Shown here piece by piece: positions 22,013-54,249 of a DNA stretch of 64,000 nt. The stretch is from Henricia sp. BOLD:AAB3569. Its lineage: Eukaryota > Echinodermata > Asteroidea > Spinulosida > Echinasteridae. The position numbers and the translations under genes are program-made. The notes under the pieces were generated by a model that worked only from the letters and a program-made list of their open reading frames with translations, ran no database searches and had not been told where the DNA came from. Within the stretch, counting starts at the first letter, position 1; each line of letters opens with the position of its first letter. Location of the stretch: the NCBI GenBank assembly GCA_037783545.1, contig JBBELK010000001.1, positions 2,809,728 through 2,873,727 of the forward strand. Reading direction: 5' to 3'.

Positions 22013-22201
22013 CTACTTCGGTGGAACAGGACCTGCATCGTAAGCAGGGGGCGGATCATATTGCTGTGCCGGCGGAGTCACGGTCGTTACGGTCGCCGCC
22101 GGTCCGCGTCTGAACTGACCAATCCCACCCTGCGCTTGAAAGGCACGGAAACTAAAGAAAGTGCTCACGCCATACAGAATCATCAGAACAAATCCCACGA
22201 C
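22013..22201 (-). CDS. MARVEL gene cassette B exon 4 (TM4, tail with PPAY)
   Basis: 62 codons and TAG. The acceptor is ggatcattacag. VVGFVLMILYGVSTFFSF is TM4. The tail is unrelated to that of cassette A except for the PPxY motif in YDPPPAYDAG, and it ends PVPPK. Confidence 0.9.
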   Translation of the reverse strand, partial: VVGFVLMILYGVSTFFSFRAFQAQGGIGQFRRGPAATVTTVTPPAQQYDPPPAYDAGPVPPK

Positions 22202-25200
22202 CTGTAATGATCCAAAGAGTTCATGTAAGTACGTAGTAGTAATAGATACATTTGTAGTCAGAAGTTTACATTCAACTGTGTTTAAACTTGCGTTGTCACC
22301 ATTTTTGTAACAGTCTTTACTAAAGTCGTGATTTTGTGGAATTCCTCATGTGCTTGCAGTACTTAACTCTTTCACTGCCCATTGTTGTTAACATTTAACC
22401 CTAAAGTGCTGAACTTTTTGTATTTTTTGAAATTGAAGTCATACATGCATGATGGTTGGCGTGTTGAAAGAAACAATTATACAAGCAAGGTTGTATTTTG
22501 TACAATATAACACTTTCAGAATGCATACAATAGATCGTACATACATGTACGACTTGGGCAGTGAAACAGTTAAAACATAGCTTGCACACCTTGCAATGGT
22601 TCGGGTAGTCCTGTTTACCATTTTGGGTGATGGTGTACATTTATGACTTCAACTGTGTATACATGTAGCTCACATTTCATATGGATGTGTTCACATGTGC
22701 TGCACATTAAAATAGGTTTTATGAAGTTATACTGCTCACGATACATGAAAGTTAGGGATATTTTATTGAGGGTATGCATTCTGCTTGAATGATTTTGTAC
22801 ATGATTAGACAATTGTATCTGCATGACAGACACACCTACAGGAATAGGCGAAAACAGTCATTTGAAGAAAAAAAAATTTTTTGAAACATACTAACTCATT
22901 GTGAGTAGTGTGTCTTCCACCTCAACATTGTTGAGATACATTTTTATAAGAGCATTTTGACGGTAATCGACTTTACATGTAACATCATTCACCATGAAAA
23001 TCCCTTATAATGAACCAGAGAGCTACATGTTGTCTGTCATGGGATGCATAGGATGCAAATGTGTTTAATTGCTTTGGTCGAGGGCACAGGTACTATACGG
23101 TATCAAACTCGCAACGACCCTAACCACTCGGACACAGACATCTCGGAACTACATGTACGAATGCTTCAGACAATCTCTGCCACTAGGCCTGTATTAGCCC
23201 GTTTCGAACATGTGTGAATACGCCATTTTGGGAGTCAAATAATGCTGAGTCATTGTGGAAGCGATGTGCGTGCGCATTGTGTGTGCTTCTGGTGGGCGTA
23301 ACACGGTTTAATTCACCAATGGTAGCCTTAGTATATGGACACACACAACGCGCACGCACATTGCTGCCACAATGACACAGCATTATTTGACTCCCATAAT
23401 GACGTCATTGGAAAGGGGTCAATACAGGATTTTAATGTCCCTAGCCTTTAGACAAGGCCTTGTGAATTGTGGTAATTATGTGACTTGAGTAGAGTCTACA
23501 CACTCCAAGTGGCTCATTACAGAAGGTGTAACGCCAAAGCCATAAGGCCTTGCCAATGTCCCAAAATGTGGTCCGCAGCCAATTTCATGAAACTTTACGC
23601 AATTGCGCAAGTCCACTTACGCCATTAAAATGTGGCGTAAGTTGGAAAGTGTCGGAAGACAGTGAAAAAAATGGCGATAATGCAGCTAGCTACACGTGCT
23701 TATTTACCGCATTGTCAACGAACTGAACCCCGGCCTTCCGTTAGTAGAAAACGTCCTTTTAAAATGTTATCATCACTGTGAAATTTGCGATGTAACACAT
23801 GATGAGCGAGCGACATGAGCGACAGCAGCCATGATGACAGTGCAAAATTTTTGAAAAACAACGACGTATGTTTTATGTATGAATATTTTATCAAGTGCAA
23901 ACATCAAATAGTCGTTGATAAAACTAGAAATTATCCTCGTCCTAGAAGTGCTACAAAGTGAAAAAATTAACGTTGCGCAGCAAATAGAAGTAGAGTTTCG
24001 TGAAATCGATCTTGGGTTTATTGCGCAGCTACGTCATAAAGTTATGGCGTAAGTCTTACGCCATGGCACAAGTTGCGCAATGTTTCGTGAAATCAGCTGC
24101 AGGACACACTCCTTTATTAAAGACTTGAGATGTGAATTAGACTTGATAAAAGGAATCTGATGTTACTTACTGCAGCGACAGCAGTCCCAAGATAACTGAT
24201 ACCCTTATACTCGAGCCAAGCAGCGTTGAAATCTGAAATCACTGATGCACGGTTAGCCACGATACATGCAGCAATGAAGTAGTTAACGGTCCATACCAAA
24301 TTGTACACAAGATCCTGTCAAAACGGAAATCAAAAATTTTCCCATTTATTTCATTTAATTTACAGAATCAACAGCATAAAGCACGCGCATCCAAACTGCG
24401 ACCAGTGTACGGTACTGCCGTTTCTTTGGGAGAGAAACACAAGGAATTTATTATGTAGAGCAGCAATTTTTCTGGAAAAAAAAGATACATCATATTATAC
24501 ATGTATAAAATCAACCAAACAATTACGTATGGTACATTTTACATCAATATATAAAAAGAAGCCCTGTAAAAATTAAAGGTTGTTAAACCACTTGGCACCG
24601 GAGGATGTTTAACCACGTTCTGGCAATGTATATTCGCTGGCAGAGTCGTGACGTCACATTGCGGGTGCCGGACTGTAAAAATGGTTACTGGTTCACGCTC
24701 ACGTTTTACATCCATTGTGTTTGCACACAGTGTATTTTACTATTATTCTTTTTGAAGAAAATATAAAAAAATAAGGACCATAATAGTTTGCTCATACCTA
24801 CTCTCATAGCGATACGCTACCATCCTGCCTTATTTTGTGATGTTTATAACAGAAAAACTCAACAGAAAATGTTCCCTTTGTGGCTCCTGTGCAAAAGGAA
24901 TGGAGAAACGCGTTGCCATGCAAGTAGCGTGAGCCGTTGTGAAAGAAGTGAGCGCATCTGCACGGAAATTGACGTCACACTCTGCCAGCGAATAGACAGC
25001 CGAAGTGTGACAGGGGTTGCTATGGCTCTATAAGCACCACGGCCGTCGGAAAAAGTACCATTTAAAAAGCACTGCAGGGACACGGCTCAGTGATTTGAAT
25101 GTATAAAACTACAAACAACATACAAGATGAAGCGAAAAAGTGATTGCAACCACAAGCTAATTTTGGCGAGTTTTACCAATTTACACAAAAAGGTATTTAT

Positions 25201-28200
25201 GAATGGGATTAGAAGTGGGTTTGGCCGGTCTTAATAAACAATCTGTTTAATCCAGCGGTGCGTGGGCAATCCAGCGGTGCGTGTGGGCGATCCAGGTACC
25301 TCGTTACAGGAGTGTACCAGTCGACAGCTGGCAGTGTGTAACCAAATGAACGGGACATATACCCCTGCATTAATGGACTCTTAGCATTTCCATATTCTAG
25401 AGATTGTATATAACCAGGTGCGGATCCAGGATTTTTTTTGGGGGGAGGGGGGGTGGTGTTGGGAGAGGTTGGGGTTGGCTAAATGCGCAGTAAAAAACCT
25501 CCCTTTACTCCGTTTATAGCTAGATACGCTAACAAAAAAAGCTATAAAAAAAGCTCGACTGAGAAGAACGTGCCCAACAGATGACAGACATCACTCCAGT
25601 TCCCAATTGCTCAACATCATCAATTTCATCAACTGCATCAATTACCCCCCTTCTCCCCCCATGCCAAGGCTGTTTGTGCACAATCAATGGGGAATTCCCA
25701 TGTGGGACTGCTGGCCTGGTAGCTTGTAACTGATACAGCGGGTGAATGAACTTACCCAGGCCACACAAATTCTACAATATGTTTCTGAAGTGTTTAATGT
25801 ACATGCATAAAGTCATGGAAAATGAGATTTTAACTAAATTCATACGCAGAGTAATTAACAAAAATGCATAATTAGGGTCCCTTCCCGGAGGGTTAAAACC
25901 GGATAGGGGCCTAGACGCTGATAAGGGAAAACCCACGCGGCCAAGTACGGGCTGCAAACCACATACACGCCCTGGAATCGAACCCTGGACGCAAGAGGTG
26001 AAAGGGGAGTTAAAACCACTAGGCCAACCCGACCGCCCATGGATATTAAATACAGACAGTGGATAAAAAATGTCTTGTAATACTTACAGTTGAAATCCAG
26101 TTAATGTTTGTCAATCGCTTGTCCAGTTGCAGAAGAAACACGAAGAACAACAAGATTGTAAGGACTACGGAAGTCATACCGCTAATTCTACCGTATGTAA
26201 CGAAATTAGAACAAGTCACCAGCAGGATGAAATAGATGAGCGACAACACCTACCAAAAATGACAACGGAGAAATATTACAAGATTAATTCACCTTGTCCC
26301 CATACCGCTCAGGCTAGGTAAAGTTTTCGAGACAATAAGCAGAAATCTGCGGCAGAACCACACTCAATAGAATACAAAAACCACAACGGAAATTCCAGGC
26401 GGAACACGACATTCCACACAGTGTCTGGGCACCGGCAGGAATTTTCATTGTGTTTTGGTATTTTAATGAGCGCGGATCTGCCCCAGATTTCTTCTTATGG
26501 TCGCAAAAACTTGACCTCGTCTGCGCGACTTAAGGGCCATTTTTGTAGAGCATGTCACATATTTTAACCAGTGTTGTAGTTATAGGGAATGGTGTTGATA
26601 CAAGTACATATACAAGTACATATACAACTCTCTGTGCATTCAGAATGAAGGTAACCATTTCAGTTTTAGCTTTTAGAGTTACTCAGGGCCTTTGAAATGC
26701 TGAAAGTACTCAGAAAAAGTACTTGCCGAGTACTTTTCTAGTACTTTTTATCATGTCAAAACATAAAAATGAAGTGATTATCTTCAACCCAAGTTTAATT
26801 GATGTACAGTTGTTAACACCATCTGCGCCATGAGCATCTTTTTTTATGGATACCAGCGCATTATAAATTTTCATTATTATTATTATAAATGTACAGCGAG
26901 TTTGACATTCTCCGTAAATCTAGTTTTTTTAGAACTCGACAGCAACATTGATTTTAACAGAGCTAGGAGAAGGCATCACTGAAGTACATGTAGGGCAAAG
27001 CATAAGGTCCAACTCACATACCTAGAAATCAAATGTTTAGTTTAAACTTGGTTATTAAAACAAGAGTCCATATATATCTTTGTAAATAATAACAATAGTT
27101 AACCATGTTTGACCTGAATTAGCTCAACAGAAAATCAACCTTTTGCATGTTTCTCGTGAACAGTGTCTGATGTATTTGTGTATACTTCCTTGCACATGCA
27201 AGCTTAGTATCCAGATGACCAGATTAACTTGTTGTTGCTATGTGGTGCATGCGGTAGGTGTGAAGTACAGAATCAATACGTGTTCATTATAGGGGAGAAT
27301 AGCATAAAGCAACCAGACTGTTGGTTGCTTGGCAATGGCGTGCACCACGCAGCAACAACAGCATAGTATGTGGACGTCTGAGCCGCACCTTCATTTGAAA
27401 GTGATGGATACGGGGCGCGTGCCATAGTGGACAAGTTACCGGCAAAAGGTTAACTTCAAGCGGTTTTCTTTGAGTTATCACGTTTATACAACATTCATTA
27501 ATCTGACTAAATTCCCACAGTCAATTATAAAATAAACCACTGTGGTCTCAGTATGAGTATAGTACACAATACATCAAGGGGCCGTCCAAAGTTGTCAGCA
27601 TTTTCACGGCTCCACAAAGCGTACGAAGGGGGATGAGGGTCGAGTGCGTATAGGATTTAACATGCACTGAAAATGTTGACATTTCATGGTAGTGACAAAA
27701 AAATGTTGATAAATAGTATTTCGGGGAGGGAGTGGTCTTGAAAAATACTCTCTCTAGAACTGTGAAAATGTCGACAACTTTGGACTGCCCATTTGTATAA
27801 AAACTAAACTTACCGCACAGCAATGAAAATATGAGATTTACAAGCCAAAAAACCCCATACATGATACATGGATTACAAAAAAAAGCTGCATTTTTATTTT
27901 GTATGGCTTTGTAACATTACATAATACAAAATGCTAGTTTATTCTGAACATAGGTGCAATTCATGTATTGTGGTTTTACCTAGATTAATTTTAAAAAGTA
28001 TAATTAAAAAGGCGATCCGGGAACATCAAAAGAAAAGAAGTCCACTCATTTTTGAAATCAACCACACATAAAAGCATAATCAACTGCCATTTTATTTTAT
28101 GGGCCATTTTATTTTTTTTTAGGTTCACCCAGATTTTGCAAACCAAATATTCCTCTTTGATTTTTAATATTCAAATTTACTGGGCTCCAAGGATTTGTAT

Positions 28201-31200
28201 GAGGCATAAAACACCCAAATAAATCCCTGTCATCTGATTAGTGCATTGTCAGTCACATGTCATTGAATTATTCAGTACAACCCATGCTCTGGGCTGCAGG
28301 CACCATGGGTTATCCACGACGCTTCGTGGGTTATCCACTTGAACTACACGTTATGCGCAAAAAGTAGGCCAGCTGTCGGCTGTACTGATGGTTGGCCTCT
28401 CGATTTTCATATTGCATGTTAAAGCGGACACGTTCATTGCGAGCTAGCCAGCTATTCACTAGACATACAAGACACAATGGCAATGGCTAATTTGCAAGTT
28501 CAGATGACGAGAATTTGTTCTGGTGTTTTATAAAACAAATAATGATGTTCAAAATTTGTGCAATAGAAAGAATAATTTCTTTCGGTGACAGATTCAACAT
28601 TCTATTCCACCCGGCTTCGCCTCATGGAATAGAACATTGAATCTGTCATCTCATGAAATTATTCCTACTATTGCACATTTTAAAAATAGACATTCATTAT
28701 TTGTATACTAACACATAATAAACATCCATAATTTGATGCCAAGTTAAATGATTTTATGTACCCTTACATCCTATAAAAATACAACTATCTTGGGACACCC
28801 TGTGTTTAAAAATACAAAGAAATATTTTCCAATTATAGTGCCACAACTTTCAAATCTGCTAAAAAAGAGACAAATACAGCAAAATTCAATCTCTATAATG
28901 CTACCAATTAAAATTTATCCACAAAAAGAAATCAAAATTGTCCTGAAAATGGGTCGGACAAAACTGGCTATGGTACATGTAGCTATACATGTAGGGGGCC
29001 AGGGAGAGGGTTTATGACATCCGATTTGCCGACTGCAATTTTCATGAGACTATGGATTTTACATGCAACTAAAAACTATCAAGTTTCATACTGAGCCCTT
29101 TATTTACCAACTAAAATAAAAATGATTGACGCTTCCAAACTACCAACCCTCCCCCTCTCCCCTCCCTCATTTGCTACAACAAGCCAGGAAAATAATGTAC
29201 AAGCATTCTATTTTAAATATACAAGTAATAGACTACTAAAATGAAAATGTCACCCTTTGTGTGTTGCCATTGATTTTGGGTCTACACTAAAACCAGTGAA
29301 CTGTTTCCCTACGCTATACCAATGGACGTTTCAGATTACCCACGAATGTTTAGACCCAATTACCATGGGAACTGACGTCACACTTTAGTAGTCTATTACC
29401 CCACAAAGGTTCAGTGAAACTATAATGGCCACTATAAACAGGTGGCCCCTTTACAAAAATAATTATACACGTGGCGTTTGGGACCAAAGTTGGGTGGCCA
29501 CTATGAACAGGTTGCCTCTTTATCAAGGTGGCCTTAATAGCAGGTTTCACTGTAATATGTGACCCTCTAGCACAAAAGCAGTCAGAAGTCACATACATTT
29601 CCTATAGCCACTAATGCAGTGCATGAGTCAAAATTCTGAAGAATTTTAGCGTTAAAAGCTAGCTGTATACATGTATGTACAATTCTCACAATAAGTTTGG
29701 GATATTGGTATGTTGTCAATCTTGGAATTACATATTTTGTTTTAAACGACCGGTTTTTACTTATTTCTGTGACAAGGTGTGTCTGTCATATACAAAATCA
29801 TGCAAGCGGAATGCATACCTTCAATAAAATTTTGCATACACCCCACAATATACATGTATCTCTAACTTACTGTGAGTAGTGTATTTCACTCCGAGTTCAG
29901 TGTATCTCAAATCTTGCTTATAATGTGGGTGCAGCATACTCAAAATCTGTCATAAAGACCCAAAAAATGCATAAAAACAATCAAACTTCTTTTGTCCATT
30001 TCTCAGCCCAATTTTGTCATATTGCCAAAATGTATACATCATTGGAAAGCTTATTTAATCATACATGTAGGCATAGGAGACGGGGGGGGGGGGGGCAAGG
30101 GGAGCTGGTGACTTTCAAAAGTGAGGGGGGTGGTGGGCGGGCAAAGATGTCAATTTGCACCCCCACTTTTTTGCCTTCTATATACGTCGTAATTCATATT
30201 TTGTCAGTAAAATCATGGTACTGTTGGCAAAAAATAAAAAAGTTAATGAAACTAATATAACACTGCTGATAAAACGCCACGGCAGTGACAATGCTATTAC
30301 ATTATATTACATACATGTATGTCCATACAAGCTGTTGCGTGAGGGCGCTCACCAAGCCCCGCCCTCTCCCCGCCCCCCCTCTGAGCGACACCAGCTGTGC
30401 CGCAACTCTCCACTTTATAAGAGCTTGCTACACCTATGTTAATGCACTTTCAAAAATTTACCCATGTGGCTAGTTTTCTGCTGGAGGATCACATACATGT
30501 ACAAGCATGACAAACCCCACTCCAAATACAGCAGCACTACTCCTGCCTACAAAATACACTATTCTATCACTTTTTGCCGTTTTATGGTGGCCTTTACAAA
30601 TACATACTTTAATCAAAATATTATGATAGTCAATGATATGTTTTTATAATACAGTCAGTACTGCAAAAGGAATAAAAACTAAATGCACAACACTGCTTAA
30701 AAATACTGAGAACTTACCAATGCTATCAGACATGCTGTATTCTTGTATGTAAAAACGGTTACTTTCCCTATATGCTATTTCTTATCTACATCAGCACCTA
30801 TATGTTACATAACTGGAAAACTACGGTGTTATCTCCATATGTGATTGACGATGTGTTAAAAAAAAAATGTGTGCGCACATTGATATAAATTCATCTTCAA
30901 TTGTTACCTTCTAACAAAAAGATATCCTGGGCAGAATTACTACTATTTATTATTTGAGCAGGATTTTCCAGTGAAATACATGTAGTTGATTAAAGGCACA
31001 GGCTCGTCAGCAATGTGCACGCGCCAAATTCGTGCAACGAAATACGCAGCTCCATAGCAAAGGTATGGAGCTGCGTATTTCGTGGTACGAATTTGGCACG
31101 CGCGCGTTGCTGACGAGCCTGTGCCTTTAAAGCCTAGCGTACATGGACCTTGCACTGGAAGCAATTAGAAGCAACTCGCGGGATCTGGGAGCAACTGATC

Positions 31201-34200
31201 AGTTACTTGAAAAAGTTGATGTACGCGCACTTGCAACTACTGGCAACTGGAAAAATTCCAGTTGCCGCGCGTTGCACATGTTCTACTTTCTGGCAACTAG
31301 TTGTATCCAGTTGCTGTCAGTTTGATCAATGTATGCGTACTTGCAACTGGTTGGTGTCAGTAGAACGAGTGCGTCTGATCACGTGGGCGCACATCGACAG
31401 CAACTGATCAGTTGCTTCCAATTGCAAGGTCGACGTACGCTAGGCTTACCCGAGTTGCTGCGTCGATGTGCGCGCTTTGGAAATGTAGACCTGGCTGGAT
31501 GCTCCCAGTTGCCGCTAGTTGTGCAACTGATCAGTTGCTCTGCGCACATCGATAGCAAATGATCAGTTGAACTGCTTCCAATTGAAAAGCCGATGTACGC
31601 TAGGCTTTACCTATGTACAGTTGTACAAGCTGATGGTACAGCCACCAATCACTGTTATATACAAACACCCGACAGACCTATTACAATGATTACATGTACC
31701 GGTACATGCACCAAGTTAGATATATAAATGCACACCGACTGCTAGCACAACTAGGAGGGGGTGGGGTTAATCTCCATGCCACCCCCTTACAACTTTAAAA
31801 ACTCGTTTTTCCTCTATTTTTGAATACTACAGGTACCAAAAATATTCCACTCAAACTAAAATAAGGTCCTACATCAATTTTAATAGCATTTTCTTGATTA
31901 TTCTCACCAATATAAAACATCCATCAATTTCAAAAGAAAGTTCTTCACCAATCACAAATCCATGATTGCAACTATTTTTATTAAAATCCAAATTGGCAAA
32001 ACAAACTAAAATCTGAAGCATTTATTTCTGCTTCCACATATTCGACTGGAGTTCTTAAAAGGCATGCCTGCTAAGCATACGGGTATGTACATGTATCCTA
32101 AATTGTCAAGGTTAAAAGAAGATGCCAGTTATAAACCGTATCAATGTTGGATGACAAACAAGGCTTGCAATTTTCACACTATGGCACTGCTCTGGGAAAA
32201 TTTCATTCTCATTTTTGAAGACGAGTTGACAAGTCATCTTTCCACATAATTTTTATAATAAAGAGATCAAAATTTTGACATATATCCTTTTCATTCTAAT
32301 TAAATGTATAGGAAAAAAGAAAGAAAAAAAAGAAAATTCAAAATAATGCATAGAACCAGTTTACACTCTACAAAAGAGTGGACCTGATTGGCTCTAACAT
32401 GGTATTTCAACCAATCGTAACAGCCCTTTTATAATTTCCTAGGTATTTAATACCTAGGAAATATAGGATTCATTTGACCCCTTATGGTGGGCACAGGGTG
32501 ACCCCAAAAATCACCCAAAAAAGATTTTCGGCTGAATAGAGTGCCTACCGTTACTTTGGGTGACCATAACTAGAAAAATAAAGGAGTACAGTTAAATTGA
32601 GTGCAGATTCAAGAATTTTGCCAAGAAGTAAGCTAGAATACCAAATTTGAGCTCTCTACCTGGTACAAAGACTGAACTATGAGCTTTCAAAGTCGAAAAA
32701 TATCACAAAAATCACTTTTCGCGACTCGCGCGCGCACAAAATGGCACTTTCTAACAAATTTCAACTGGCCATATCTCAAAAACGACATTGGGTATGATTG
32801 AACTTTTTTGTATGTGTTCATTTGGGCCACACTCAATCATTCTTATGAAATTTCATCAAAATCTGAGAGGGTCACCTGGGGACCACTGGTTGATTTGACA
32901 TGGAATGACCTTTTTCTTAATTTATTTCATCTACGCTCAATCTGTCAAAAACTGCATCTTTCCTTTATGAAAAACATGTTGGAAGATCACATGTCAATTA
33001 GCCTTTTTGTAGTATGGCGGATACAATAGAAGGGCGCACTTTGAAGTGGGTAAAAAAATCAAATAAAATGCAATATAACTGAATTTTTCACTTTGCACTT
33101 ATTTATTTTATTTAAAATTCTGTCTCTGTATTGTAATTGCAACATGTAAATCATGTTTTTGGAAAGAAATACAATTGTTAAAAACATTTATACTCAAATA
33201 CAAATGTGCCCTGTCCTTTTGTTCCGCTATACTTCTATAAGGCTAATTGCTTCACATGATGAGAATGAATATGTCATGTCCCCAGAGTCCCATAGGTTTG
33301 TGTGAAAATTGCCAGCCTTGTTTGTCATCCAATCCCATGATGACTTGAGAATGTCGATAAGGTTTATTGCCGACGATATGCATGCATGTGCATGTATCTA
33401 CATCACCAAATAATAAAGAAATATTTCCCACATGGATTTTGGAAAACGGCAACCACTTTAAACACCAAAGTTTATGATTAAACAAAGGATTATTAGTATT
33501 TTTTTCCTTTTTCAAACTTACATACGTGTACATGCAAAGTTATTTCCGACAGGGTCGCTTTGAACCATCGGTGCCCAGTCATCCATGAATCAATTTTTCC
33601 ATGTATGCTGAAGAGAAACAATCTCTATGCTTTTCAAAAATTGGATTTGGTTTTTGTTCTTCATGAGTGACTATCCCTTCTTCCTACCGAAATTTCTGGC
33701 GACGTTTTTATTTACTCTGCAGTTTTCAAATATACATGTAATAACAGGGTACATGGTGACAAACGTGAATGGAACGGATTCCCTGTGTGCTTTAAAGGGC
33801 CTGTGACATCCAAAATAACTTTGTGCCTAAGCTTTGCTTCATAATGATGGAATACTTGTTCAGCAAGACATACTATTGTTCGTTTGGATGTAAAATCAAT
33901 AAAAGGTGGCCTTTTGCAACTTTGAAGATTTCATTGCAATAAATCACAGACAGAGGGCGCTGTTTTGAGTGCATCACATAAGGAAGACAGAAGGGAAAAG
34001 TTAAGAAAAAACATAAGACTTCAAGTTGGACTTGTAGGAAATTGCTGCAGTTTCTACCCCCAGTTTTATCATGGCTTACAGCAGGCAACATGTAAATCAA
34101 ACTCAAACAGCCATGGATTACAAAAGTTTCAGGAAAATTGAGAAAAAAGTGGAATCGTTTGTGCACAATTGTATGTGATTTTCCCGTCTGTGCCTCTTGT

Positions 34201-37200
34201 GACATAGTGACCTTGGTCATGAATATGCATATTTGCATTAGCATAAAAACTAAAAACCTTCATTTTAACCCCCAAAGCAAGCTCCAAATAGGATTGTTAT
34301 GACTTTAACTGAGTAGAGTGGTTTTAAAGCATAGATTTCATTGATAAAAATCCTAAATAAGGGGCCCTTTAAATAGCAGCAAATCGCCGACGCGGACACA
34401 GCCAGCGCCACACTGCACTGTGTTTACATTCTACGCGCGTGTAGTCGAATGCCCGCAATGTACTGCCAAGCGTCCTGATTGGTCCAGAGCAGTGACAAGA
34501 TTTCTGTCGCTGTTAACACAGCGAAATGGGGCCAGTTTCAACAGGGCCTCGGGATGCACAAGTACATGTAAGGGGGTGCGTTAAAGAGGCACTGTTGCGA
34601 GAGGATGACATTGGACTTAATTTGGTAAAATTTGAAGAGATCTCCGTAAGTTTTACCAATCTTAGTCCAATGCGGACCCAGCTATTGCCGTTTCCCAAAA
34701 TCCCTAATAATTACTAAGTTATTCAGCAAACTAAACTCAGTTTCCTTTTTTAAGACACTGTTATAACCTTTAAGAACAGGCCAATCTATTATTTCTTTTT
34801 TAGTAAGGCGGGGGTGCCTCACCGCCCTTTTCAACTGGGTAATCCGAGGTAGTGACCGACGTGGTTGTAGTAGTAGCTCCCCCAGCCCAGCCGCCTCCAG
34901 TTAGGAAACTCAGTCCACCTCCGGCTTGGAAAATACGGAAATTGAAAAAGGTGCTCACTCCGTACAGGATCATCAGGACAAACCCAAGAATCTACAATAA
35001 AAAAAGGGACAAATTCATGCTTGTTTATAAACTTTACATTGATGCTCATAAACTTTACATTGATGCGCCATAAAACCCTTATGGACGGTCTTTCTCAAAT
35101 GACATCCCTTCCTACAGATTGCCACATACATCAAGATCTTGAGCGTAAATTTTTGTGATGCACATCAACTACGCCGTATTTTCAACAAATATCTGATGGC
35201 ACATATCTGATGGTGTTTAATACGCAGTTCTATTTTTCCTACAAAGATGGCCATCTGTGAGAGTGGTCCTTACACTGGTCCATACAGGGTCCATACAGGG
35301 TCCATACAGGGTCCATACAGGGTCCCCCCCCCCCCCCCCACCCCCCACAAAAAAAAGATTCTAGGGAAGATCTGTGTATTCAACGAGGATTTAAAATAAT
35401 GGGGCCAATTTCATGGCGCTGCTTAAGCGCTACATGTAGCTGAAAACGTGTGCTTACTGGAGCAGAAAAGTTGTTGTAACTTTAAGGCTATTTCATGGCC
35501 GCGGCGTGCTTAAAAGGCACAGGCTCGTCAGCAATGCGTGCGCGCCAAATCCATGCCACGAAATACGCAGCTCCATAGCAAAGGCATGGAGCTGCGTATT
35601 TCGTGGCATGAGTTTTTCGGGCGCGCATTGCTGACGAGCCTGTGCCTTTAAGCATGCGCGTGCTTGGAAACGGGCATTGTTGCATCACTAGTGTTTAAAA
35701 AATTTGCCTCTGAAGCTAGCAAACGTTTGCTCCATGAAATAGCCAGAGCCTCCGTTAGCACAAAATCGGCTGCTAAACAGCTCCATGAAAATGCAGCCCC
35801 AGATGTGAACGCACGCCTCTTCATTTAACGAAGATTAAAATCGCTCTGTTCAGCGAACAGATTGCGCCATTCGACGAAGCAAAATTTGAATGTGTACACT
35901 ACAAAGCGATTTGACACGTACCGAGATGGGGTGCGCACAGCTTTATTCGATCATCGTTAGCGGTTGTCTAATGTGAACGGTACCGCTCTTTGTTCGATCT
36001 TTCTTAAAGGAGCGTGCTTAGATCATATTTTTGATTTTGAACCCCATTTTTCCCATGGGTGTTGAAATTTTGATATCATACCATATCATTTGTCATATTT
36101 TTTTCTATTACCACTCTTAAATTTTGCATTCTCCATCCACATATTTTCAAGGATATTGTCAACAAAACGCTGATGTTTTGTAAACTGATTTATCCAGTCA
36201 CATAAAACACTGCAGTGATCACATCAACAAAACTTTTTTTGCTTCCACATTCCAATTGGAGGTTGCAAATTTCCTGTTTTTTGCCCAAATGGATAGTATT
36301 CTGGGGAGGTACAGTATTTTATATCATTCTTGGCTTATAATGAAATTCATTTACTGGAAAAATCTAAACACGCTCCTTTAAGTGAGATGTGATAGTACGC
36401 TCTATTAATGATGATTAACTAATCTTCGTCGAACGAAGCGATTTCCCTAATGGGTACGGGGCCCATGTCTTACTTACTGCAGCAAATGCTGAGCAGCCAT
36501 GAAGGGAGTACCAGCCCTTTGCAGTGAGACTAGCCACAATACAAGCAGCGATGAAGTGCAGAACAGTCCACACAAGATCGTGCAGCAATTCCTGTGGATA
36601 ACAACAACCAAATCTGAGATGAAAGAAAAATTGAACCTGAGACGTCTGATATACCATCCAGGCGGGGTTGTAGTCGAGTCCTAAACAAGTCTATCACAAG
36701 TCCAGCAGCCGATTTCACGAAACACTGCGCAACTTGCGCCATGTCGTAAGACTTACGCCATAACTTTATGGCGTAGCTGCGCAATAAACCTAAGATCTAT
36801 TTCACGAAACTCTCCTTAGCTGCGCAACATTTATTTTTTACTTTAGCACTTGTAACTTCTAGGACGAGGATAATTTCTATCGTTTATCAACGACTATTTG
36901 ATGTTTGCGCTTAATAAAATAGTCATACATGTACAAAAAACATACGTCGTTGCTTTTCGAAAATTTTGCACTGTCATCATGGCTGCCATCGCTCATGTTG
37001 CTCGGTCATCATGCGTCGCGTCGTAGATTTCACGGATGATAAAAGGCTGTTTTCTACTAACGGAAGATTGGGGTTCAGTTCGTTGATGATGCGGTAAATA
37101 AGCACGTGTACATAGCTGCATTATTGCCATTTTTCACTGTCCTACATGTACGACACATTTTTCCCAACTTACGCCACCAAAAACCATTGCGCAAGTTACG

Positions 37201-40200
37201 CCACATTTTATGGCATAAGTCGACGAGTTGCGCCATATCCAAATGTGGCGCAACTTTCGTGAAACACGCCGCAACTTTCGTGAAACGCGCCGCAACTTAT
37301 TGCGCAAATTGCGCAATAATTTATGGCGTAAGCAGTCCTTCATTTCGACTACATATACCGTACAACCCTGCTGTGCTTTGAGGCAGAGTGGTAACACTCC
37401 ATAAGGTTTTATTTCATAGGCTCAATCACATTTCTGGTCACATTCCTGGTTTTACGCACCGGTGGCGCTGTAATTATGTAGTTAATCCTAGTCATTCCTA
37501 GTTAGATCGTACTCAAACCTAGTGACCCATAATCAATCCTTTCAAACCGTCTAAAATTTGACCAATGAGAACTCAGAACGATTAATGAAGGTTGAGTTGT
37601 TTAAATAAACTGAAATACCGGTACCATGGCTGCCTGATGAATATTTAAGGCATAGCAAATTGTGCTTAGGGCACTGTCACACATTCTCAGTTTTGTGTCC
37701 CAGTTGGCCCTGATGCATCCTGGTGTCCCTCTGCTACAGTCGACCATGGTTTTGGCTCTAAACCGGGATGAATTTATAATATCACGATCCTACTAAGAAA
37801 TGCCCACAACGGAGCCTGGAGTCGAAAGGCAAGTCCAATGCCCCTAGAAGCAACAGCTGTGTCCCGGCTTCAATAGGACTGCGCAAGGCGGCACTAGGAA
37901 CCCCAACAAGCCACGGCTATGCTGGTGGCCCTAGGGGTCCAGTAGGGCTCTAGTAGAGTCCTGCTAGGTTTTGCTACAATTTCAATTTCTTCCTAGTTGA
38001 TCCCGGAAAAGTATTGCACGCAAGACTCAACCGGAACACATTGCCGATTGAAGACGGTTGGCAAGGATTGACTATGGGTCACCAGATTTGAGTACGGTCT
38101 AACTAGGATTTACTAGGATTAATTATAACACACCTCTTTCTGATTCTCAATCCTGACTGGCTGAAACGCACTAATCTAGTGCATGAAATTTGCGCCAGCG
38201 TGAACTAGACGCGCGTATCAAGCTTTGAGCACGCGCGTCAAGACTTCAAGCGCGCGTGTTAAAGGGGTAATCAGTGTACACTAAGGGTATGTTCAGACAG
38301 AGGGCTACTTTTTTTTTTAGCCCCAATCCAATTAACGGACTCAGCAGGGGTTCGCTGGAGCTAAAGTGAGTTAGTCTACAATGCCCTCCCGTTCAAACGG
38401 TGATGATAACTCCGGAGCTACAGTTTCAGAGGAGCTAAAATGTGGTCAAATTTGATAGCATATTAACATTGGCCAGATGCCACAGAGCGAGGTCAGTTGC
38501 ATTCAGTCAGTAAATAACGGTGGAGCTAAGTCATAAAAGAAACCCGCTGTGCTAAAAGTGGAGCTAGCCCCACAAATTTCGGGGGCTAAATTTGGCGAGG
38601 GCTAGACCCGGAGCTACATGTAGCCCAAGACGGGAGTTTGGGGTGGAGCTACATGTAGCTAGCTCCGGAGCTAGCTCCAGAGACAGCCACTCGTCTGAAC
38701 GACCGATACGAAATCCAATAGTAGCGCCTTTGGGACGCAAAATCGGGAATGTATGACTTCAGCCTTATAAACATAAGAAAATGCATGTATGTACTTACAG
38801 TCAAGAGCCAGTTGATTATGGTGACTCGTTTGTTAAGTTGCAACAGGAACACAATAAAGAAGACAATAGTTATAACCCATGATGAGATGGCGACAGTCAG
38901 AGGGAATCCAGCTAAATAGACACAGGCTGCCAGCATGATCCAGTAGATGAAATTCGTGATCTGTAGAAATTAAAGGAGCTTGTTCAGATTTTTCTAGAAA
39001 ATGGATTTCATTCTATATAAACCTACATGTAACAATCATATAAAATAATATCCATAAAAAATAAAAACGGGAAATTTGCAATATATCCAATTTGGAAAAC
39101 ATGTACGTACACGTGGCAAAAAGGGTGGTGTAATTACTGCACTGCTTTATGAAACAGATATATTAGTTTACAAAATATCTGTCGTTTTTTTACAATATCC
39201 TTAAATACGGATTAAGAGCGAGGAATTTCTGAATGGTAATGAGAAAAATGACAATGAGAAAAATGACAATGAGAAAAACGACAAATGATACATGTATATG
39301 GGTCTTTGTTTCCATAAAAACAGGAGCCAAAGTGTGACATTTTGATGCATTTGTAAATTGGCCTTTTCAAGTTAACAAAAATCTTTAGACATTTCTGTGC
39401 AATTTCTGAAAAATGTAATATATTTCAAATAACTTACAAATGGTTGGACATGTCTTGGTATCATAGTCTTTAAAATATTCAAGAATTTTGTTTCAAGATG
39501 TACCGTAGGGGTGGGGGACGGAGGCGGAGGGGGGAGGAGGGGGGAGGAGGGGGGGATGGGGGGGGGGGGGGGGGGACTGCATGGCATTTTTTAACTCATG
39601 CGATTACATTTCAAGTCTTTTTGACCATTTTCTTTCTGTAAAAGGTAGTTGCTGATTTTACCCAGCTGTAGAACATGGACATTAAATACCGATTCAAATT
39701 ACATTATGAGCGAAATATTTTACATTTTGAGCGAAAGTTTCAAAATATCACACTTGGATTTAGAAGATTGCACTACTGTACATGTAGTTTATTGAATTGT
39801 TCTCGTTATGTTTTGGGTAGTATCAACAGATAAAGGTGGTGTTCGATTTATGAGGCCATATATTCTTTATATGCCGAGGGTAATCGTTTTCTGAAGTCTG
39901 GTATTTATAAAAAATAAACTCCAGAAGGGGGACATAGAATGACCCATACATGTACCGGGGGTATATGGTATCAAAATCTCAACACCCATGGGAAAACAAC
40001 TTTAAAAGGGTGTCAAAAATGTGATCACGCTCCTTTAATTAAAATAAAACAAAACAAAATGTCCAATGACTACATCCCGTAGACTGGATTCGTACGCAAC
40101 CGACCAAGAACAAAGAGAAGAATTTAGAATAAGTCATTTTGAAACTCCTTGTTCAAGTGCGGGAAAACGCACATAGATTTTTCATGTTTTTGGAAAACGT

Positions 40201-52200: not shown

Positions 52201-52710
52201 CGAGTCCGTGTTACACGGACTCGCCAGCCACGGAGGGAATCCCCGATGATTTCTCGCATTTGAAACATTTTTGTTTCGGGACATGTTTGTCAGTATGTTT
52301 GATATGTATTGAAGATAAAGTGGTGGGAGGTTGGTTCTTGAACTCTTTTTGGTTTTCGTGAAAATTAGCAAAAACGTTGCCGAGTTCGCGTCCGGTAGGT
52401 TTATGCACAATTAGCCGGGCAATTTTGTCATCCAATACCATGATGCATTGCGAACGTCGATAAGGTTTATTGTCCTTGAGTACTGCATTCCTAAACATTA
52501 ATATTGTTTTTAAAAAAATTAAAAACTATTGACAACTGAAGCAAAGTTTTTCCAACTTACGATTTCCACAATCCGCAGGATGCCGGGAACCGATTTGAGG
52601 TAGGCCATGTCAACACTCACTGGCGGCGCCTGCACGGTTGTGGTGTTCGTCGTGGCCGTGGTAGTTTGCGTGGCCGTGTAATGGCTGTCCGGGAACGCTG
52701 GGTCATCCAT
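22013..52710 (-). CDS. MARVEL-domain four-pass membrane protein, one first exon and two alternative three-exon cassettes
   Basis: It resembles CMTM/plasmolipin-type proteins of membrane trafficking and cholesterol-rich domains. Exon 1 is 52710-52561 (50 codons). Cassette A is 38960-38799, 36591-36478 and 34991-34800. Cassette B is 26249-26088, 24314-24171 and 22201-22013. All internal boundaries are phase 0 with GT-AG signals, so exon 1 can join either cassette to give 205 (A) or 214 (B) residues. TM1 spans the exon 1/2 joint, TM2 ends exon 2, TM3 is in exon 3 and TM4 starts exon 4 (GFVLMILYGVSTFF in both). The N-terminus is Thr-rich and carries YLKSVPGILRIVEI. Both tails end near a PPxY motif. 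No separate first exon for cassette B was found between 26.3 and 34.8 kb. The family call is firm. Splicing from the shared exon to B is inference, and an unseen first exon would make B a tandem paralog. Confidence 0.85.
22249..22655. mobile_element. Tc1-like miniature element, copy 1
   Basis: The ends are tttgtagtcagaagtttaca and atgacttcaactg, the terminus style of Tc1/Sleeping Beauty-like transposons, with TA at the left flank. The copy at 46577-47066 shares the inner sequence gttgtcaccatttttgtaac. No transposase is present. It is interrupted at 22367-22569 by another element. Confidence 0.85.
22367..22569. mobile_element. 203-bp element, family TTAA-4, nested in the Tc1-like copy
   Basis: The terminal repeats are CTCTTTCACTGCCC and its mirror GGGCAGTGAAACAG, flanked by TTAA at 22363-22366 and 22570-22573. 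The other Tc1-like copy reads cagtacttaaaatatagctt across the same place. That is the empty site with a single TTAA. Confidence 0.92.
23228..23396. repeat. 169-bp foldback
   Basis: gggagtcaaataatgctgag at the left and gcattatttgactccc at the right are mirror copies. The arms continue through cattgtggaagcgatgtgcg and its counterpart. It lies downstream of cassette B exon 3. Confidence 0.75.
23576..24099. mobile_element. Inverted-repeat element family K, copy 1
   Basis: The ends are cagccaatttcatgaaactt and tttcgtgaaatcagctg. It is rich in cttacgccat/atggcgtaag words. A related copy, partly inverted, is at 36703-37332 and shares tagaaattatcctcgtccta. Both copies lie near exon 3 of their respective MARVEL cassettes. 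Confidence 0.7.
24171..24314 (-). CDS. MARVEL gene cassette B exon 3 (TM3)
   Basis: 48 codons, DLVYNLVWTVNYFIAACIVA to YLGTAVAA. The acceptor is cgttttgacag and the donor GCA|GTAAGT. DLVxxxVWTVxxFIAACIVA is nearly shared with cassette A. Confidence 0.9.
24631..24994. mobile_element. Inverted-repeat element in cassette B intron 2
   Basis: The ends are tattcgctggcagagtcgtg and cactctgccagcgaata, each followed inward by gacgtcac. About 364 bp and non-coding. Confidence 0.65.
25873..26040 (-). mobile_element. tRNA-derived SINE, minus copy
   Basis: Read on minus it starts gggcggtcgggttggcctag, has a B box in gggttcgattccagggcg, then gtttgcagcccgtacttggc and gcgtgggttttccctt. It is the same family as the plus copy at 41752-42022. 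Its tail is cut off at about 25873. Confidence 0.8.
26088..26249 (-). CDS. MARVEL gene cassette B exon 2 (TM1-TM2)
   Basis: 54 codons, VLSLIYFILLVTCSNFV to QLDKRLTNINWIST. The acceptor is catttttggtag and the donor ACT|GTAAGT. The open frame and splice sites are intact, so it is not a decayed copy. Confidence 0.9.
26341..26492. mobile_element. 152-bp inverted-repeat element
   Basis: The ends are agaaatctgcggcagaacca and ggatctgccccagatttct. It lies upstream of cassette B exon 2. No coding content. Confidence 0.6.
26493..30993. other. Between the two MARVEL cassettes: repeats, no exon found
   Basis: I looked on minus for a second first exon (a YLKSxPG-type sequence ending in a donor) and saw none. 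Recognised pieces are a ggggccgtcc element (27578-27790), a hairpin around ttctattccacccggcttcg (28558-28677), an element with gtaatagactactaaaatg ends (29225-29399), one with cagtgaaac...gtttcactg ends (29412-29552), and a G-rich tract near 30080-30130. Confidence 0.5.
30994..31126. mobile_element. 133-bp palindromic element, family TTAA-1, copy 1
   Basis: AGGCACAGGCTCGTCAGCAA and its mirror bound an almost complete palindrome (ttcgtgcaacgaaatacgca / tgcgtatttcgtggtacgaa), with TTAA on both sides (30990-30993 and 31127-31130). Further copies are at 35514-35647 and 54886-55017, with a truncated one at 55967-56064. The right TTAA is also the start of the adjoining TTAA-9 element. Confidence 0.9.
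31131..31609. mobile_element. Family TTAA-9 element, copy 2
   Basis: The ends are agcctagcgtacatggacct and ccgatgtacgctaggctt. The interior has repeated gcaactgatcagttgct and cgatgtacgc words. Open frames on plus across it are not supported as genes. Confidence 0.75.
31613..33284. other. Unassigned stretch between MARVEL cassettes
   Basis: No coding sequence is recognised. A short perfect palindrome, cctaggtatttaatacctagg, lies at about 32440-32460. Confidence 0.4.
33285..33382. mobile_element. Solo end of the 600-bp foldback family
   Basis: gtttgtcatccaatcccatg and tgtcgataaggtttattgc match the right terminus of the foldbacks at 18378-18981 and 51859-52471. The rest of the element is missing. 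Confidence 0.75.
33550..34600. repeat. Dispersed repeat family J, copy split by an insertion
   Basis: 33550-33795 matches the left part and 34369-34600 the right part of the 53456-54034 copy (aacggattcc, ttaaatagcagc, gcgtcctgattggtcc, aatggggcc). The break falls exactly at a TTAA that is single in the unbroken copies. Confidence 0.85.
33796..34368. mobile_element. 573-bp element, family TTAA-5, inserted in family J
   Basis: The termini are AGGGCC and its mirror GGCCCT, with TTAA at 33792-33795 and 34369-34372. The uninterrupted family J copies read gctttaaatagcag (53.8 kb) and its complement (3.9 kb) at this point, which proves a TTAA target-site duplication. A 123-codon minus-strand frame inside has no recognised similarity. 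Confidence 0.92.
34800..34991 (-). CDS. MARVEL gene cassette A exon 4 (TM4, tail ending PPPY)
   Basis: 63 codons and TAA. The acceptor is tttttattgtag. ILGFVLMILYGVSTFFNF is TM4. A Gly- and Thr-rich tail follows and ends in EAPPPY, a PPxY motif of the kind bound by WW domains of NEDD4-type ubiquitin ligases. Confidence 0.9.
   Translation of the reverse strand: MLGFVLMILYGVSTFFNFRIFQAGGGLSFLTGGGWAGGATTTTTSVTTSDYPVEKGGEAPPPY
35277..35342. repeat. 11-bp tandem repeat and poly-C
   Basis: About four copies of tccatacaggg are followed by a C-rich run of about 20 bp. The run length may be unreliable in the assembly. Confidence 0.85.
35401..35800. mobile_element. ggggccaatttcat-type element with nested TTAA-1 palindrome
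   Basis: The ends are ggggccaatttcatggcgct and ccatgaaaatgcagcccc, the same end type as 20212-20440. The 134-bp TTAA-1 palindrome at 35514-35647 is inserted in it, with ttaa on both sides. Confidence 0.75.
36008..36377. mobile_element. TTAA-2 element, copy 2
   Basis: It starts aggagcgtgcttagatcata and ends aacacgctcct, with TTAA at 36004-36007 and 36378-36381. It lies 100 bp downstream of cassette A exon 3 on the minus strand. Confidence 0.85.
36478..36591 (-). CDS. MARVEL gene cassette A exon 3 (TM3)
   Basis: 38 codons, ELLHDLVWTVLHFIAACIVA to HGCSAFAA. The acceptor is gttatccacag and the donor GCA|GTAAGT. It is 10 codons shorter than the cassette B counterpart, in the loop between TM3 and TM4. 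Confidence 0.9.
36703..37332. mobile_element. Inverted-repeat element family K, copy 2
   Basis: It starts cagcagccgatttcacgaaa and ends in gcgcaataatttatggcgta. It shares tttatggcgtagctgcgcaa and the atcgtttatcaacgactatt region with the copy at 23576-24099, in opposite orientation. It also contains tandem cgtgaaacgcgccgcaactt-like units. Confidence 0.65.
37482..38122. mobile_element. 641-bp element with about 60-bp terminal inverted repeats
   Basis: The ends are ttaatcctagtcattcctag and ctaggatttactaggattaa. The match runs inward through gtgacccataatcaatcc and its mirror ggattgactatgggtcac. No open frame of note. Confidence 0.75.
38291..38700. mobile_element. 410-bp element built of ggagctaaa/tagctcc words
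   Basis: The ends are gttcagacagagggcta and cactcgtctgaac. The interior contains many repeats of ggagcta. It ends 99 bp from the donor side of cassette A exon 2. Confidence 0.6.
38799..38960 (-). CDS. MARVEL gene cassette A exon 2 (TM1-TM2)
   Basis: 54 codons, ITNFIYWIMLAACVYLAGF to QLNKRVTIINWLLT. The acceptor is taatttctacag and the donor ACT|GTAAGT. It has the same length and phase as 26249-26088, with shared residues FVFLLQLxKR-like and INW. A TTAA-2 transposon end lies 10 bp upstream of the acceptor AG. Confidence 0.9.
38974..40034. mobile_element. TTAA-2 element, copy 3, with internal insertion
   Basis: It starts aggagcttgttcagattttt and ends gtgatcacgctcct, with TTAA at 38970-38973 and 40035-40038. 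It is about 1.06 kb against about 360 bp for other copies, because a G-rich and AT-rich insert occupies roughly 39300-39950. The left TTAA is 8 bp upstream (in transcript direction) of the acceptor AG of cassette A exon 2. Confidence 0.85.
40211..40816. repeat. 339-bp tandem duplication
   Basis: The segment beginning cacattcagagcttcc (40211) is repeated from 40550 with few changes, including gaaactgataaatgtaac and cagtattggatggcgaaagt. There are two units. No gene is recognised. Confidence 0.85.
40878..41125 (-). pseudogene. Tc1/mariner-type transposase, C-terminal remnant
   Basis: In one minus frame the sequence reads MDWPARSPDLNSIEH, then after an in-frame stop RDMLGRCERAHNK. Further stops follow, with QLDDLRTALVEEM and finally NACGGHTRY before a TGA. 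DWPARSPDLNPIEH is the conserved block around the third catalytic residue of Tc1 transposases, and GGHTRY is a usual end. Several stops show it is dead. A terminus-like ctgaacaaaattataaacgc at about 42732 may belong to the same family. Confidence 0.85.
41752..42022 (+). mobile_element. tRNA-derived SINE, plus copy
   Basis: The A box lies in gggttggcgtagtggttctt and the B box is ggttcgaatccg. A body with gcgtgggttttcccctgggg follows, and a tail of (aac)n after aaaataaacaacaac. It is the same family as 25873-26040. Pol III transcription would start at about 41752. The frames across it are not genes. Confidence 0.85.
42023..43330. other. MARVEL intron 1 stretch without recognised exons
   Basis: Many tacatgtacatg words occur, but there is no coding similarity. 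The 14-mer atcaaggcgttggg at 43184-43197 matches in inverted orientation just outside the right arm of the large palindrome (45949-45962). Confidence 0.4.
43331..45941. repeat. 2.6-kb near-perfect palindrome (giant foldback)
   Basis: The arms 43331-44593 and 44686-45941 (about 1.26 kb each) are inverted copies with few differences and a 92-bp spacer. The outer ends are TTAAGAGCCAGATTCTGTAA and its mirror, so TTAA lies at both borders. Within each arm gagggcgc and cacccataggtggcgc words form smaller hairpins. I find no open frame of significance in the arms. It could be a foldback transposon of the TTAA group or a recent inverted duplication. Confidence 0.9.
46577..47066. mobile_element. Tc1-like miniature element, copy 2
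   Basis: The ends are cagttgtagtcagaagttta and cttctgacttcaactg, flanked by TA. The inner part matches the copy at 22249-22655. It is interrupted by the element at 46611-46848 and carries the empty TTAA site corresponding to 22363. Confidence 0.88.
46611..46848. mobile_element. 238-bp element nested in the Tc1-like copy
   Basis: The ends are gggtctttctataaattagg and taatttatagaaagacc, flanked by tacaa at 46606-46610 and 46849-46853. The other Tc1-like copy lacks it. Confidence 0.8.
47442..47670. mobile_element. hAT-like miniature element
   Basis: The ends are cagggatcgaatttcatgac and gtatttcgagccctg, with tgagc directly on both sides. It is related in end sequence and ctggtcc-type words to 17743-18183. 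Confidence 0.75.
47925..48489. mobile_element. 565-bp Mutator-like element with 9-bp target duplication and nested TTAA element
   Basis: Terminal repeats of about 60 bp start TACTTTTAGAAGGCTAAAAG and are mirrored at the right. GTTAATGAT flanks both ends exactly (47916-47924 and 48490-48498). Inside, 47994-48093 is a 100-bp element with ends ggctagattggccccctgtc and its mirror, itself flanked by TTAA (47990-47993 and 48094-48097). Confidence 0.88.
48500..49503. other. MARVEL intron 1 stretch, nothing recognised
   Basis: AT-rich sequence with no exon, transposase or clear repeat border visible. Confidence 0.4.
49504..49637. mobile_element. 134-bp hAT-like miniature element
   Basis: The ends are cagggcaggaaattcg and gaatttccagccctg, with atttaa on both sides (49498-49503 and 49638-49643). 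The interior has tandem ggcctctgtggcctctgt. Confidence 0.75.
49644..50976. other. MARVEL intron 1 stretch, nothing recognised
   Basis: I see no exon or element boundary. A T-run lies at about 49995. Confidence 0.4.
50977..51819. mobile_element. 600-bp foldback, copy 2, with a duplicated right arm
   Basis: It starts aataaaccttatcgacgttc. Its centre is a long perfect hairpin around gtcctcatcacggac (about 51300), and the right arm runs to aatgcatt at 51608. From 51609 a second copy of the right arm follows (tgtttcgggacatgtttgtc) and ends in gataaggtttatt. The mirrored frames beginning MTHIKHTDKH on both strands come from the symmetry. Confidence 0.85.
51859..52471. mobile_element. 600-bp foldback, copy 3, next to MARVEL exon 1
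   Basis: The outer ends are aataaaccttatcgacgttc and its mirror gaacgtcgataaggtttatt. It lies 90 bp from the exon 1 donor, in intron 1. The hairpin centre differs from copy 2 (gatctgcactgcgagtccgt). Confidence 0.88.
52561..52710 (-). CDS. MARVEL gene exon 1 (start codon, cytosolic N-terminus)
   Basis: The ATG is at 52710-52708 with an in-frame TAG at 52719-52717 upstream, which supports this start. It encodes a Thr-rich stretch (TATQTTTATTNTTT) and MAYLKSVPGILRIVEI. The donor is ATC|GTAAGT at 52560. The sequence upstream (52711-53060) is CpG-containing and free of the common repeats, and is the likely promoter. Confidence 0.88.
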
Positions 52711-53060
52711 TTTCGGCTAGAAATATCCTCAAATCGTCTTCAACAAAACTACCAGTGTTAAGTTGATCTTAATAATGTTTCAGGTTTGTTAAAATTGGAT
52801 TCAATTTCCGAGCTCTAAAATGCAGGTCCACACAAACAAGCATACACACACTCGATCTTTCATTGTTGAGCGCCCAAATCCGTCCAAGGTCGCGCGATAT
52901 GTGCACGGACGTAATGTGGACGTTCATTGTATAGCGCCCAATTGGGCTATAAAACACGCATCACACCGACGCGCCTTTACAAACGTCAAGGAACCCTGCA
53001 AATTACGCGTACACGCCCGTGAGAAAGATCACGAGTGTCTGACTATTTTGTGTTGGGATA
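52711..53060 (-). promoter_or_regulatory. Probable promoter region of the MARVEL gene
   Basis: This is the sequence directly upstream of the start codon, free of recognised transposons and relatively rich in CG. A CCAAT-containing cccaattgggc is near 52940. The TATAAAA at 52949 reads on the opposite strand, so it is not a TATA box for this gene. The promoter call rests mainly on position. Confidence 0.35.
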
Positions 53061-53455
53061 AGAATCACGTGGAACTTACGAATCCCAAGTAAAATGACGT
53101 CATTACACTAATGAGGAATGAGTAAATCCAATTCATTCATTGTAAAAGTCCTACTCATAAGGCCAATCATGACCACACTTGAATTATTGTGCCAACTTAT
53201 TTTTATTTTTTTAATAAAAAATTCACCCGAAAGTTGACATCCGTCATGCTCAGTTGCGGCCTATATTTGCGCGCTGCCAACTTTGTCCCATGCACGACTT
53301 GTTTAGGTATCACGATACAAAACTCAACAGCTTTGACACGAGGCCAAATTAAGGTCTTCCTCCATGGTCTAGTAAAGTTGGGCGACAGCTACGCATACCA
53401 GGGAAATGTTCTAGTGTTCCAACATGGTCCAACTTTTTGGACCACACCATTAACC

Positions 53456-54034
53456 CATCCTGAGATCTCAGGGAATTTCTTCTCTGCAAAGCGACGTGAC
53501 AATACCCTGAGGAAATACACGCAAATCTGTGGAGCGAGCCGGCTGTTGTCTTGAGCCAACTCACGCCCGAGTCATTTTGATGTAATTTAATCAATTCGGT
53601 CATGTTATGCCTAAAAGAAACAATTTCTATACTTTCCAGAAATTGTATTGGGTTCCGTTCCTTATGACTGTCCCATTCCTACCAAACTTTCAAACGACGA
53701 ACCTTATTTACTGCGCAGTTTTTCAAATTAATAACAGGGATGCATGCTGACGAATGTAATAGAACGGATTCCCCAATATGCTTTAAATAGCAGCCAATCG
53801 CCGACGCGGGCAACGGCCAGCATTACCGAGTACATGTATCACATGCATGCACGGTGTTTACAATCTGCGCGCGTTACATTTGAATGCCTGCAATCGTGCT
53901 GCACTGCACTGCAAGCGTCCTGATTGGTCCAGCAGAGGCGACAAGATTTCTGTCGCTTGTCCCACCGCCAAATGGGGCCTTTTTCAACAGGGCCACTGTA
54001 CGCAGGAGTTAGGGAGTGCGTTAAAGGGGCACTG
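53456..54034 (+). repeat. Dispersed repeat family J, copy 3 (uninterrupted)
   Basis: It matches 3635-4217 in inverted orientation and the two halves of the split copy at 33.6-34.6 kb. It contains the empty TTAA site (gctttaaatagcag, about 53781). The open frames here are not conserved between copies. Confidence 0.85.
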
Positions 54035-54249
54035 TTGCAAGAGGATGCATCCAACCTTGGCAGTCGGCCAACGTCACTCGTCAGACAAAAGGTCAACAAA
54101 ATGTGCGGGATATTCCCAGCTACTGCATATCCTCAGTCATAATCATGGTCGATCAGTGTAACTCTCTGCATCGTATTTCTTTGCACGACATGTATAGTTC
54201 CCATGGTTCATCAATCGCCGATGGCAAACGATGGCGTCGTCAACTTGAA

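What the first reader, a model, noticed from the sequence alone, without database searches (positions are those of the whole stretch)
22013..52710. One first exon followed by two complete MARVEL exon cassettes
Seen: a single start exon (52710-52561, phase 0 end) is followed on minus by exons 2A-3A-4A with a stop, then by 2B-3B-4B with its own stop. Exon 2 lengths are identical (162 nt), all phases match, and all splice sites are intact in both sets. I found no separate start exon for cassette B in the 8.5 kb between the cassettes. Inference: alternative splicing of one transcript chooses between two different four-pass proteins. This would be a tandem exon-cassette gene rather than two genes.
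Basis: partly seen in the sequence, partly recalled or inferred. Interest (0 to 1): 0.75.

Follow-up and report, generated by a model that had tools for sequence, protein, structure and literature searches.

The report
Shared first exon, two plasmolipin cassettes
In an echinoderm (probably starfish) genome, one start exon is followed by two complete, intact sets of the remaining exons of a four-pass membrane protein gene, and no second start exon of the same family was recognised, so either one gene makes two proteins by splicing or the second gene has an unrecognised start of its own.

Summary
Observation confirmed. On the minus strand a 150-nt start exon (52710-52561) is followed by exons 2-4 of cassette A and then of cassette B. 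All introns are GT-AG and phase 0, and each set has its own stop. Joined to the start exon, both give a full Pfam MARVEL domain of plasmolipin/MAL type. A and B are old paralogues (about 47% identical, dN 0.32, dS saturated), so both look maintained. Equal phases and exon-2 lengths say nothing about sharing: human PLLP has the same four-exon plan, so they follow from descent. The only argument for sharing is the missing first exon of B. In the 8.55-kb gap no donor site has a tail like the start exon's; a homologous exon at A-B divergence should have been seen 84-93% of the time. But the human MAL and PLLP tails (recalled) score only -1 against each other, so a strongly diverged exon could be missed, and a non-homologous one is not excluded. 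No transcript data were available. Shared start exon about 0.47, hidden own start 0.45. Genes sharing a first coding exon are a known, rare kind; interest is moderate.

The parts
52561..52710 (-). start exon e1: 50 aa, N-tail plus the first MARVEL residues (..YLKSVPGILRIVEI), phase-0 donor GTAAGT
   Evidence: only site with this tail motif before a GT on the minus strand
38799..38960 (-). exon 2A, 162 nt, TM1-TM2 (TM assignment by analogy with PLLP)
36478..36591 (-). exon 3A, 114 nt, TM3 (by analogy)
34800..34991 (-). exon 4A, 192 nt with TAA stop, TM4 (by analogy) and C-tail ending PPPY
26250..34799 (-). 8,550-nt stretch between the A stop and B2; holds several repeats; no first exon resembling e1 found
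26088..26249 (-). exon 2B, 162 nt, TM1-TM2 (by analogy)
24171..24314 (-). exon 3B, 144 nt, TM3 (by analogy), 10 codons longer than 3A
22013..22201 (-). exon 4B, 189 nt with TAG stop, TM4 (by analogy) and C-tail with PPAY
52480..53479 (-). e1 and its 5' flank, no other copy among the matches scored, CpG o/e 1.07 (1.24 in the 500 bp holding e1): likely promoter region
   Evidence: (40 of 2793 candidates scored); promoter role inferred

Best explanation
An ancestral four-exon plasmolipin/MAL-type gene underwent a tandem duplication that kept or copied only exons 2-4. The single promoter and start exon now serve both sets. Splicing e1 to A2, with cleavage after A4, gives protein A (205 aa). Skipping A and splicing e1 to B2, 26.3 kb downstream, gives protein B (214 aa). 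Both are MARVEL proteins, four-pass by family, with the same N-tail, different membrane cores, and a PPxY-like motif in each C-tail. Shown: the exons, frames, splice sites, domain, paralogy and constraint. Inferred: the e1-B2 junction, the promoter and the regulated choice.
For: e1 scores 71 against its own tail. In the 8.55-kb gap the best of 228 open GT sites is 11 and of 20 strong donors 6; with GC donors and the recalled MAL and PLLP tails added, the best single score among the gap sites listed is 12 (8 best shown). Expected sensitivity: 54 of 64 overlapping A/B 15-mers exceed 11, and 93% do in simulation at 45% identity. Recalled human MAL and PLLP tails score 18 and 19 against e1. B alone falls below the MARVEL cut-off (31.3 of 32.8 bits) and e1 lifts it to 47.3. 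Of 12 GTRAG donors in the gap 3 have an in-frame ATG, and one of these lies in a high-copy repeat. CpG o/e is high at e1; in the gap the one clearly CpG-rich stretch overlaps repeats. Partial duplicates are common (PMC3449122), and genes sharing a first coding exon exist (PMC4528330).
Against: No transcript shows e1-B2. A non-homologous or two-part first exon for B would pass unseen. The tail test has limits: recalled MAL and PLLP tails score -1 against each other, and in leave-one-out they beat the best site in the gap only narrowly (8.5 against 6.5, 9.0 against 7.5). Elsewhere on the strand, chance reaches 17 (21848) and 21 (22190, a stretch straddling the 4B acceptor). Tandem paralogues usually have their own promoters (general knowledge), and a shared coding first exon is rare: FlyBase counted 10 pairs and one triplet. 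CpG downstream of B (0.76) does not differ from intron 1 of A (0.74), so a single transcription unit is not marked out. Matching phases are expected by descent.
Confidence: 0.47

Rival explanations
1. Two ordinary tandem genes: B has its own promoter and a first exon in the 8.55 kb that is non-homologous to e1, too diverged, or split into a non-coding leader plus a tiny coding exon.
For: TM1 is almost entirely in exon 2, so a short exon with ATG and a phase-0 donor would do. Candidates with ATG exist at 33522 (MYTY|GTAAGT) and 31908. Recalled MAL and PLLP tails score -1 against each other, so first-exon tails can diverge beyond this test. Separate promoters are the usual state of tandem paralogues (general knowledge). 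Partial duplicates that recruit new exons are documented (PMC3449122, passages).
Against: No tail like e1 in the gap at 84-93% expected sensitivity for A-B divergence. The candidate at 34080 lies in a high-copy repeat. The one CpG-rich stretch in the gap overlaps repeats. The two remaining candidates have no family resemblance.
Confidence: 0.45
2. B is a silent or decaying partial copy without a first exon.
For: No first exon recognised.
Against: All three B exons are open and all their splice sites intact at dS 1.84 (saturated) with dN 0.32 over 108 codons. The core of exon 4 is nearly unchanged. A silent copy of that age would have decayed (inference).
Confidence: 0.05
3. Assembly fault: the B first exon was lost by a collapse or misjoin in the contig.
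For: The window lies at the end of contig C1, and the gap holds high-copy repeats.
Against: No N in the window. No second copy of e1 or of the B exons was listed elsewhere in the 740.7-Mb assembly.
Confidence: 0.03

Closest known systems
Plasmolipin (PLLP) / MAL branch of the MARVEL family
   Same: Four exons, large first intron, exon I plus part of II coding TM1, exons II-IV carrying TM2-TM4 (human PLLP, passages of PMC8682038); MARVEL domain; C-terminal YGVSxFF stretch like PLLP (recalled).
   Different: Two sets of exons 2-4 behind one visible first exon; PPxY-like C-tails.
Drosophila adjacent genes sharing a first coding exon (FlyBase 'Genes with CDS overlap', e.g. Su(var)3-9 / eIF-2gamma)
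   Same: One promoter, start exon and translation start for two products (PMC4528330, section 8 read).
   Different: Here both products are paralogues of one family; sharing is not yet shown by RNA.
Human CKLF-CMTM1 read-through locus and CYP3A43-CYP3A4/5 chimeric RNAs
   Same: Joint transcripts of neighbouring family members, named in PMC5793191 (passages); that CYP3A43 gives its first exon is recalled.
   Different: There each gene also has a first exon of its own (recalled).

Membership tests
MARVEL domain family (PF01284) | Pfam score above the curated cut-off 32.8 | tested here: met
   e1+A 49.4 bits, e1+B 47.3 bits; B without e1 31.3, just below
Plasmolipin/MAL branch | four-exon gene with large first intron, first intron near the start of TM1 | tested here: met
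   first intron 13.6 kb to A2 or 26.3 kb to B2
Plasmolipin/MAL branch | placement with PLLP/CMTM8/MAL in a tree | not tested
   no set of animal homologues was available; resemblance to PLLP is from recalled sequence
Gene with shared start exon and alternative 3' cassettes | only one start exon for two coding sets | tested here: inconclusive
   no second start exon resembling e1; a diverged or non-homologous one is not excluded
Gene with shared start exon and alternative 3' cassettes | transcripts joining the same exon to both cassettes | not testable with these tools
   no RNA data; the genome searches listed no retrocopy of either spliced form

The most novel reading that the evidence does not exclude
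A single plasmolipin-type gene whose one start exon is spliced to either of two ancient, complete membrane cassettes. Because every intron is phase 0, it might also make mixed forms (A2-A3-B4 or A2-B3-B4 stay in frame), so that one promoter controls the ratio of two raft-type four-pass proteins.
Probability: 0.43. Interest if true: 0.5.

Novelty: new member of a known kind. Interest (0 to 1): 0.38.

Why it matters
If e1 serves both cassettes, it is a clean case of a partial tandem duplication kept for a long time by sharing the parent's promoter and start exon. It would show how paralogues can stay transcriptionally coupled, and gene finders would easily miss or misread it. If not, it is an ordinary pair of tandem genes with a hard-to-see first exon.

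Tried and rejected
Donor scoring with a typed general metazoan matrix was useless here, because the five known donors scored 1.1-2.4, under its threshold; it was replaced by intron-side patterns and tail scoring. The Pfam family search of the genome gave 4 weak matches, none above cut-off, and did not list the window's own MARVEL exons, so it cannot show that no other family members exist. Its C808 pair looks synaptophysin-like by eye (recalled); the other marginal loci were only read in three frames and showed nothing I could name. A search with human MAL gave 2 matches, E 0.5 and 5.9; the first read as an aminotransferase fragment by eye, the second as nothing recognisable. Gap stretches 33588-33796 and 34367-34607 match 53589-54047 upstream of e1 at 73%, which could look like a copied promoter, but the same sequence also occurs at 3634-4074, so I take it as a dispersed repeat; blastn listed no match of the gap to e1 itself. 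CpG depletion as a mark of one transcription unit did not separate the gap from the flanks. The PDB search gave only two chitinase sequences at E 0.81. In prokaryote contigs 84 stretches matched a pattern and none was a relative (the viral collection was not scanned). Structure prediction was not tried, because the proteins are spliced, not read straight from the DNA. The tail hits at 21848 (17) and 22190 (21) lie downstream of B2, so they cannot be its first exon. The candidate exon at 34080 was rejected because it lies in a high-copy repeat.

Full report
What is there. On the minus strand, e1 (52710-52561) reads ATG to a phase-0 donor. Cassette A (38960-38799, 36591-36478, 34991-34800) and cassette B (26249-26088, 24314-24171, 22201-22013) each carry three exons with intact GT-AG borders and their own stop. 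e1+A gives 205 aa and e1+B 214 aa. Both match positions 2-135 of 135 of Pfam MARVEL (49.4 and 47.3 bits, cut-off 32.8), and B without e1 scores 31.3. A and B are 23/54, 20/38 and 30/63 identical in exons 2, 3 and 4 (over the length of the A exon, the last two in gapped alignments), 47% over the aligned part. Over 108 ungapped codons dN is 0.32 and dS 1.84, i.e. saturated (loops and C-tails left out). The duplication is old and both copies look constrained.

Which animal. The genome held for the window has 740.7 Mb in 2104 contigs, and the window ends contig C1. Mitochondrial COX1 (4 matches) reads best with AAA=Asn, as in STNHKDIG (the conserved form is recalled), which is echinoderm code 9. 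Of the 6 tRNAs found beside it, 5 run against COX1, which fits the starfish-versus-urchin inversion described in PMC3308324 (passages). So: an echinoderm, probably a starfish.

Family and architecture. Human PLLP has four exons with a large first intron, exon I plus part of II coding TM1 (PMC8682038, passages). The same plan appears here twice. PMC10792014 (passages) groups PLLP with CMTM8 and MAL. So the phases and exon order are most simply ancestral, and any tandem duplicate would match in phase. What remains is the missing first exon for B.

Testing the missing exon. A strict tail motif before any GT finds e1 alone on the minus strand of the window. I then scored stop-free 15-residue stretches before a GT, outside the exons, against the e1 tail. 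e1 itself scores 71. The best in the 8,550-nt gap is 11 (228 sites), or 6 among 20 strong donors. The best elsewhere in those minus-strand segments is 17, at 21848, downstream of the B stop; on the plus strand the best of 1793 sites is 14. A scan of the whole minus strand with GC donors and recalled human MAL and PLLP tails (3188 sites) adds a 21 at 22190, straddling the 4B acceptor, and a best single score of 12 among the 8 gap sites shown. As for sensitivity, 54 of 64 overlapping A/B 15-mers exceed 11. In simulation 93% do at 45% identity, 88% at 40% and 70% at 30%. MAL and PLLP tails score 18 and 19 against e1, but -1 against each other, and in leave-one-out they beat the best gap site only narrowly (8.5 against 6.5, 9.0 against 7.5). 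So the test is good for a copy as diverged as A and B are elsewhere, and weak for a faster-changing one. Of 12 GTRAG donors in the gap, 3 have an in-frame ATG upstream. One, at 34080, is inside a roughly 580-bp repeat with many 98-99% identical copies. The other two (33522, 31908) have no family resemblance but cannot be excluded. B2 has an in-frame TAG directly before it, so its frame cannot simply extend upstream.

Promoter hints. CpG o/e is 1.24 in the 500 bp holding e1, reached or passed by 17 of 287 windows sampled. The e1 flank up to 53500 has no other copy among the matches scored, while the intron just after e1 holds a high-copy element (40 of 2793 candidates were scored). In the gap the one clearly CpG-rich stretch, 30.8-31.4 kb, overlaps repeats at 30987-31130 and 31185-31303. 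This is weak support. The region after B (0.76) does not differ from intron 1 of A (0.74).

Copies elsewhere. Searches with A and B listed only exons of this locus plus one marginal match each, E about 2, and no retrocopy that would reveal a spliced form. These searches see close paralogues only: A found exon 3B at E 0.6.

Known parallels. FlyBase lists 10 pairs and one triplet of genes sharing a short coding stretch, most with the promoter and first exon (PMC4528330, section 8). The human CKLF-CMTM1 read-through is listed in PMC5793191 (passages). Partial duplicates make up 21% of young C. elegans pairs, perhaps 38%, and 27% of new genes in D. melanogaster (PMC3449122, passages). So a shared start exon after partial duplication is plausible and of a known kind. 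I saw no report of this locus in the listings, which does not show that none exists.

Verdict. Observation confirmed; the sharing inference is about even with a hidden start exon of B. RNA junctions would settle it at once.

Noticed in passing
window 33790-34373: About 580-bp repeat with dozens of 98-99% identical copies listed across the genome (40 candidates scored), some 430 nt after the A stop.
   Followed up: partly
window 52400-52475: High-copy element (2793 candidates at first look) in intron 1 shortly after the e1 donor; further copies lie near 51.5-51.9 kb.
   Followed up: no
window 8025-10298 (+): 757-aa open frame with reverse transcriptase domain (RVT_1, 124.8 bits): a LINE-type element.
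   Followed up: no
window 58928-63440 (-): PSMD7/Rpn8 exons (MitMem_reg; tblastn with recalled human PSMD7, residues 120-321) upstream of e1 on the same strand; residues 1-119 were not found in the window.
   Followed up: partly
window 11112-11864 and 14230-14697 (+): Long open frames that looked like exons of a JmjC-type gene by eye, but neither matched a Pfam family at E 0.01.
   Followed up: partly
window 34800-34830 and 22013-22080 (-): Both C-tails carry a PPxY-like motif (A ends PPPY, B has PPAY), a possible WW-domain/Nedd4-type ligand (motif recalled).
   Followed up: no
window 21848 (-): ALIPGILKKFHL followed by GTAAAT resembles the e1 tail (score 17) just after the B stop; no third cassette was listed.
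   Followed up: partly
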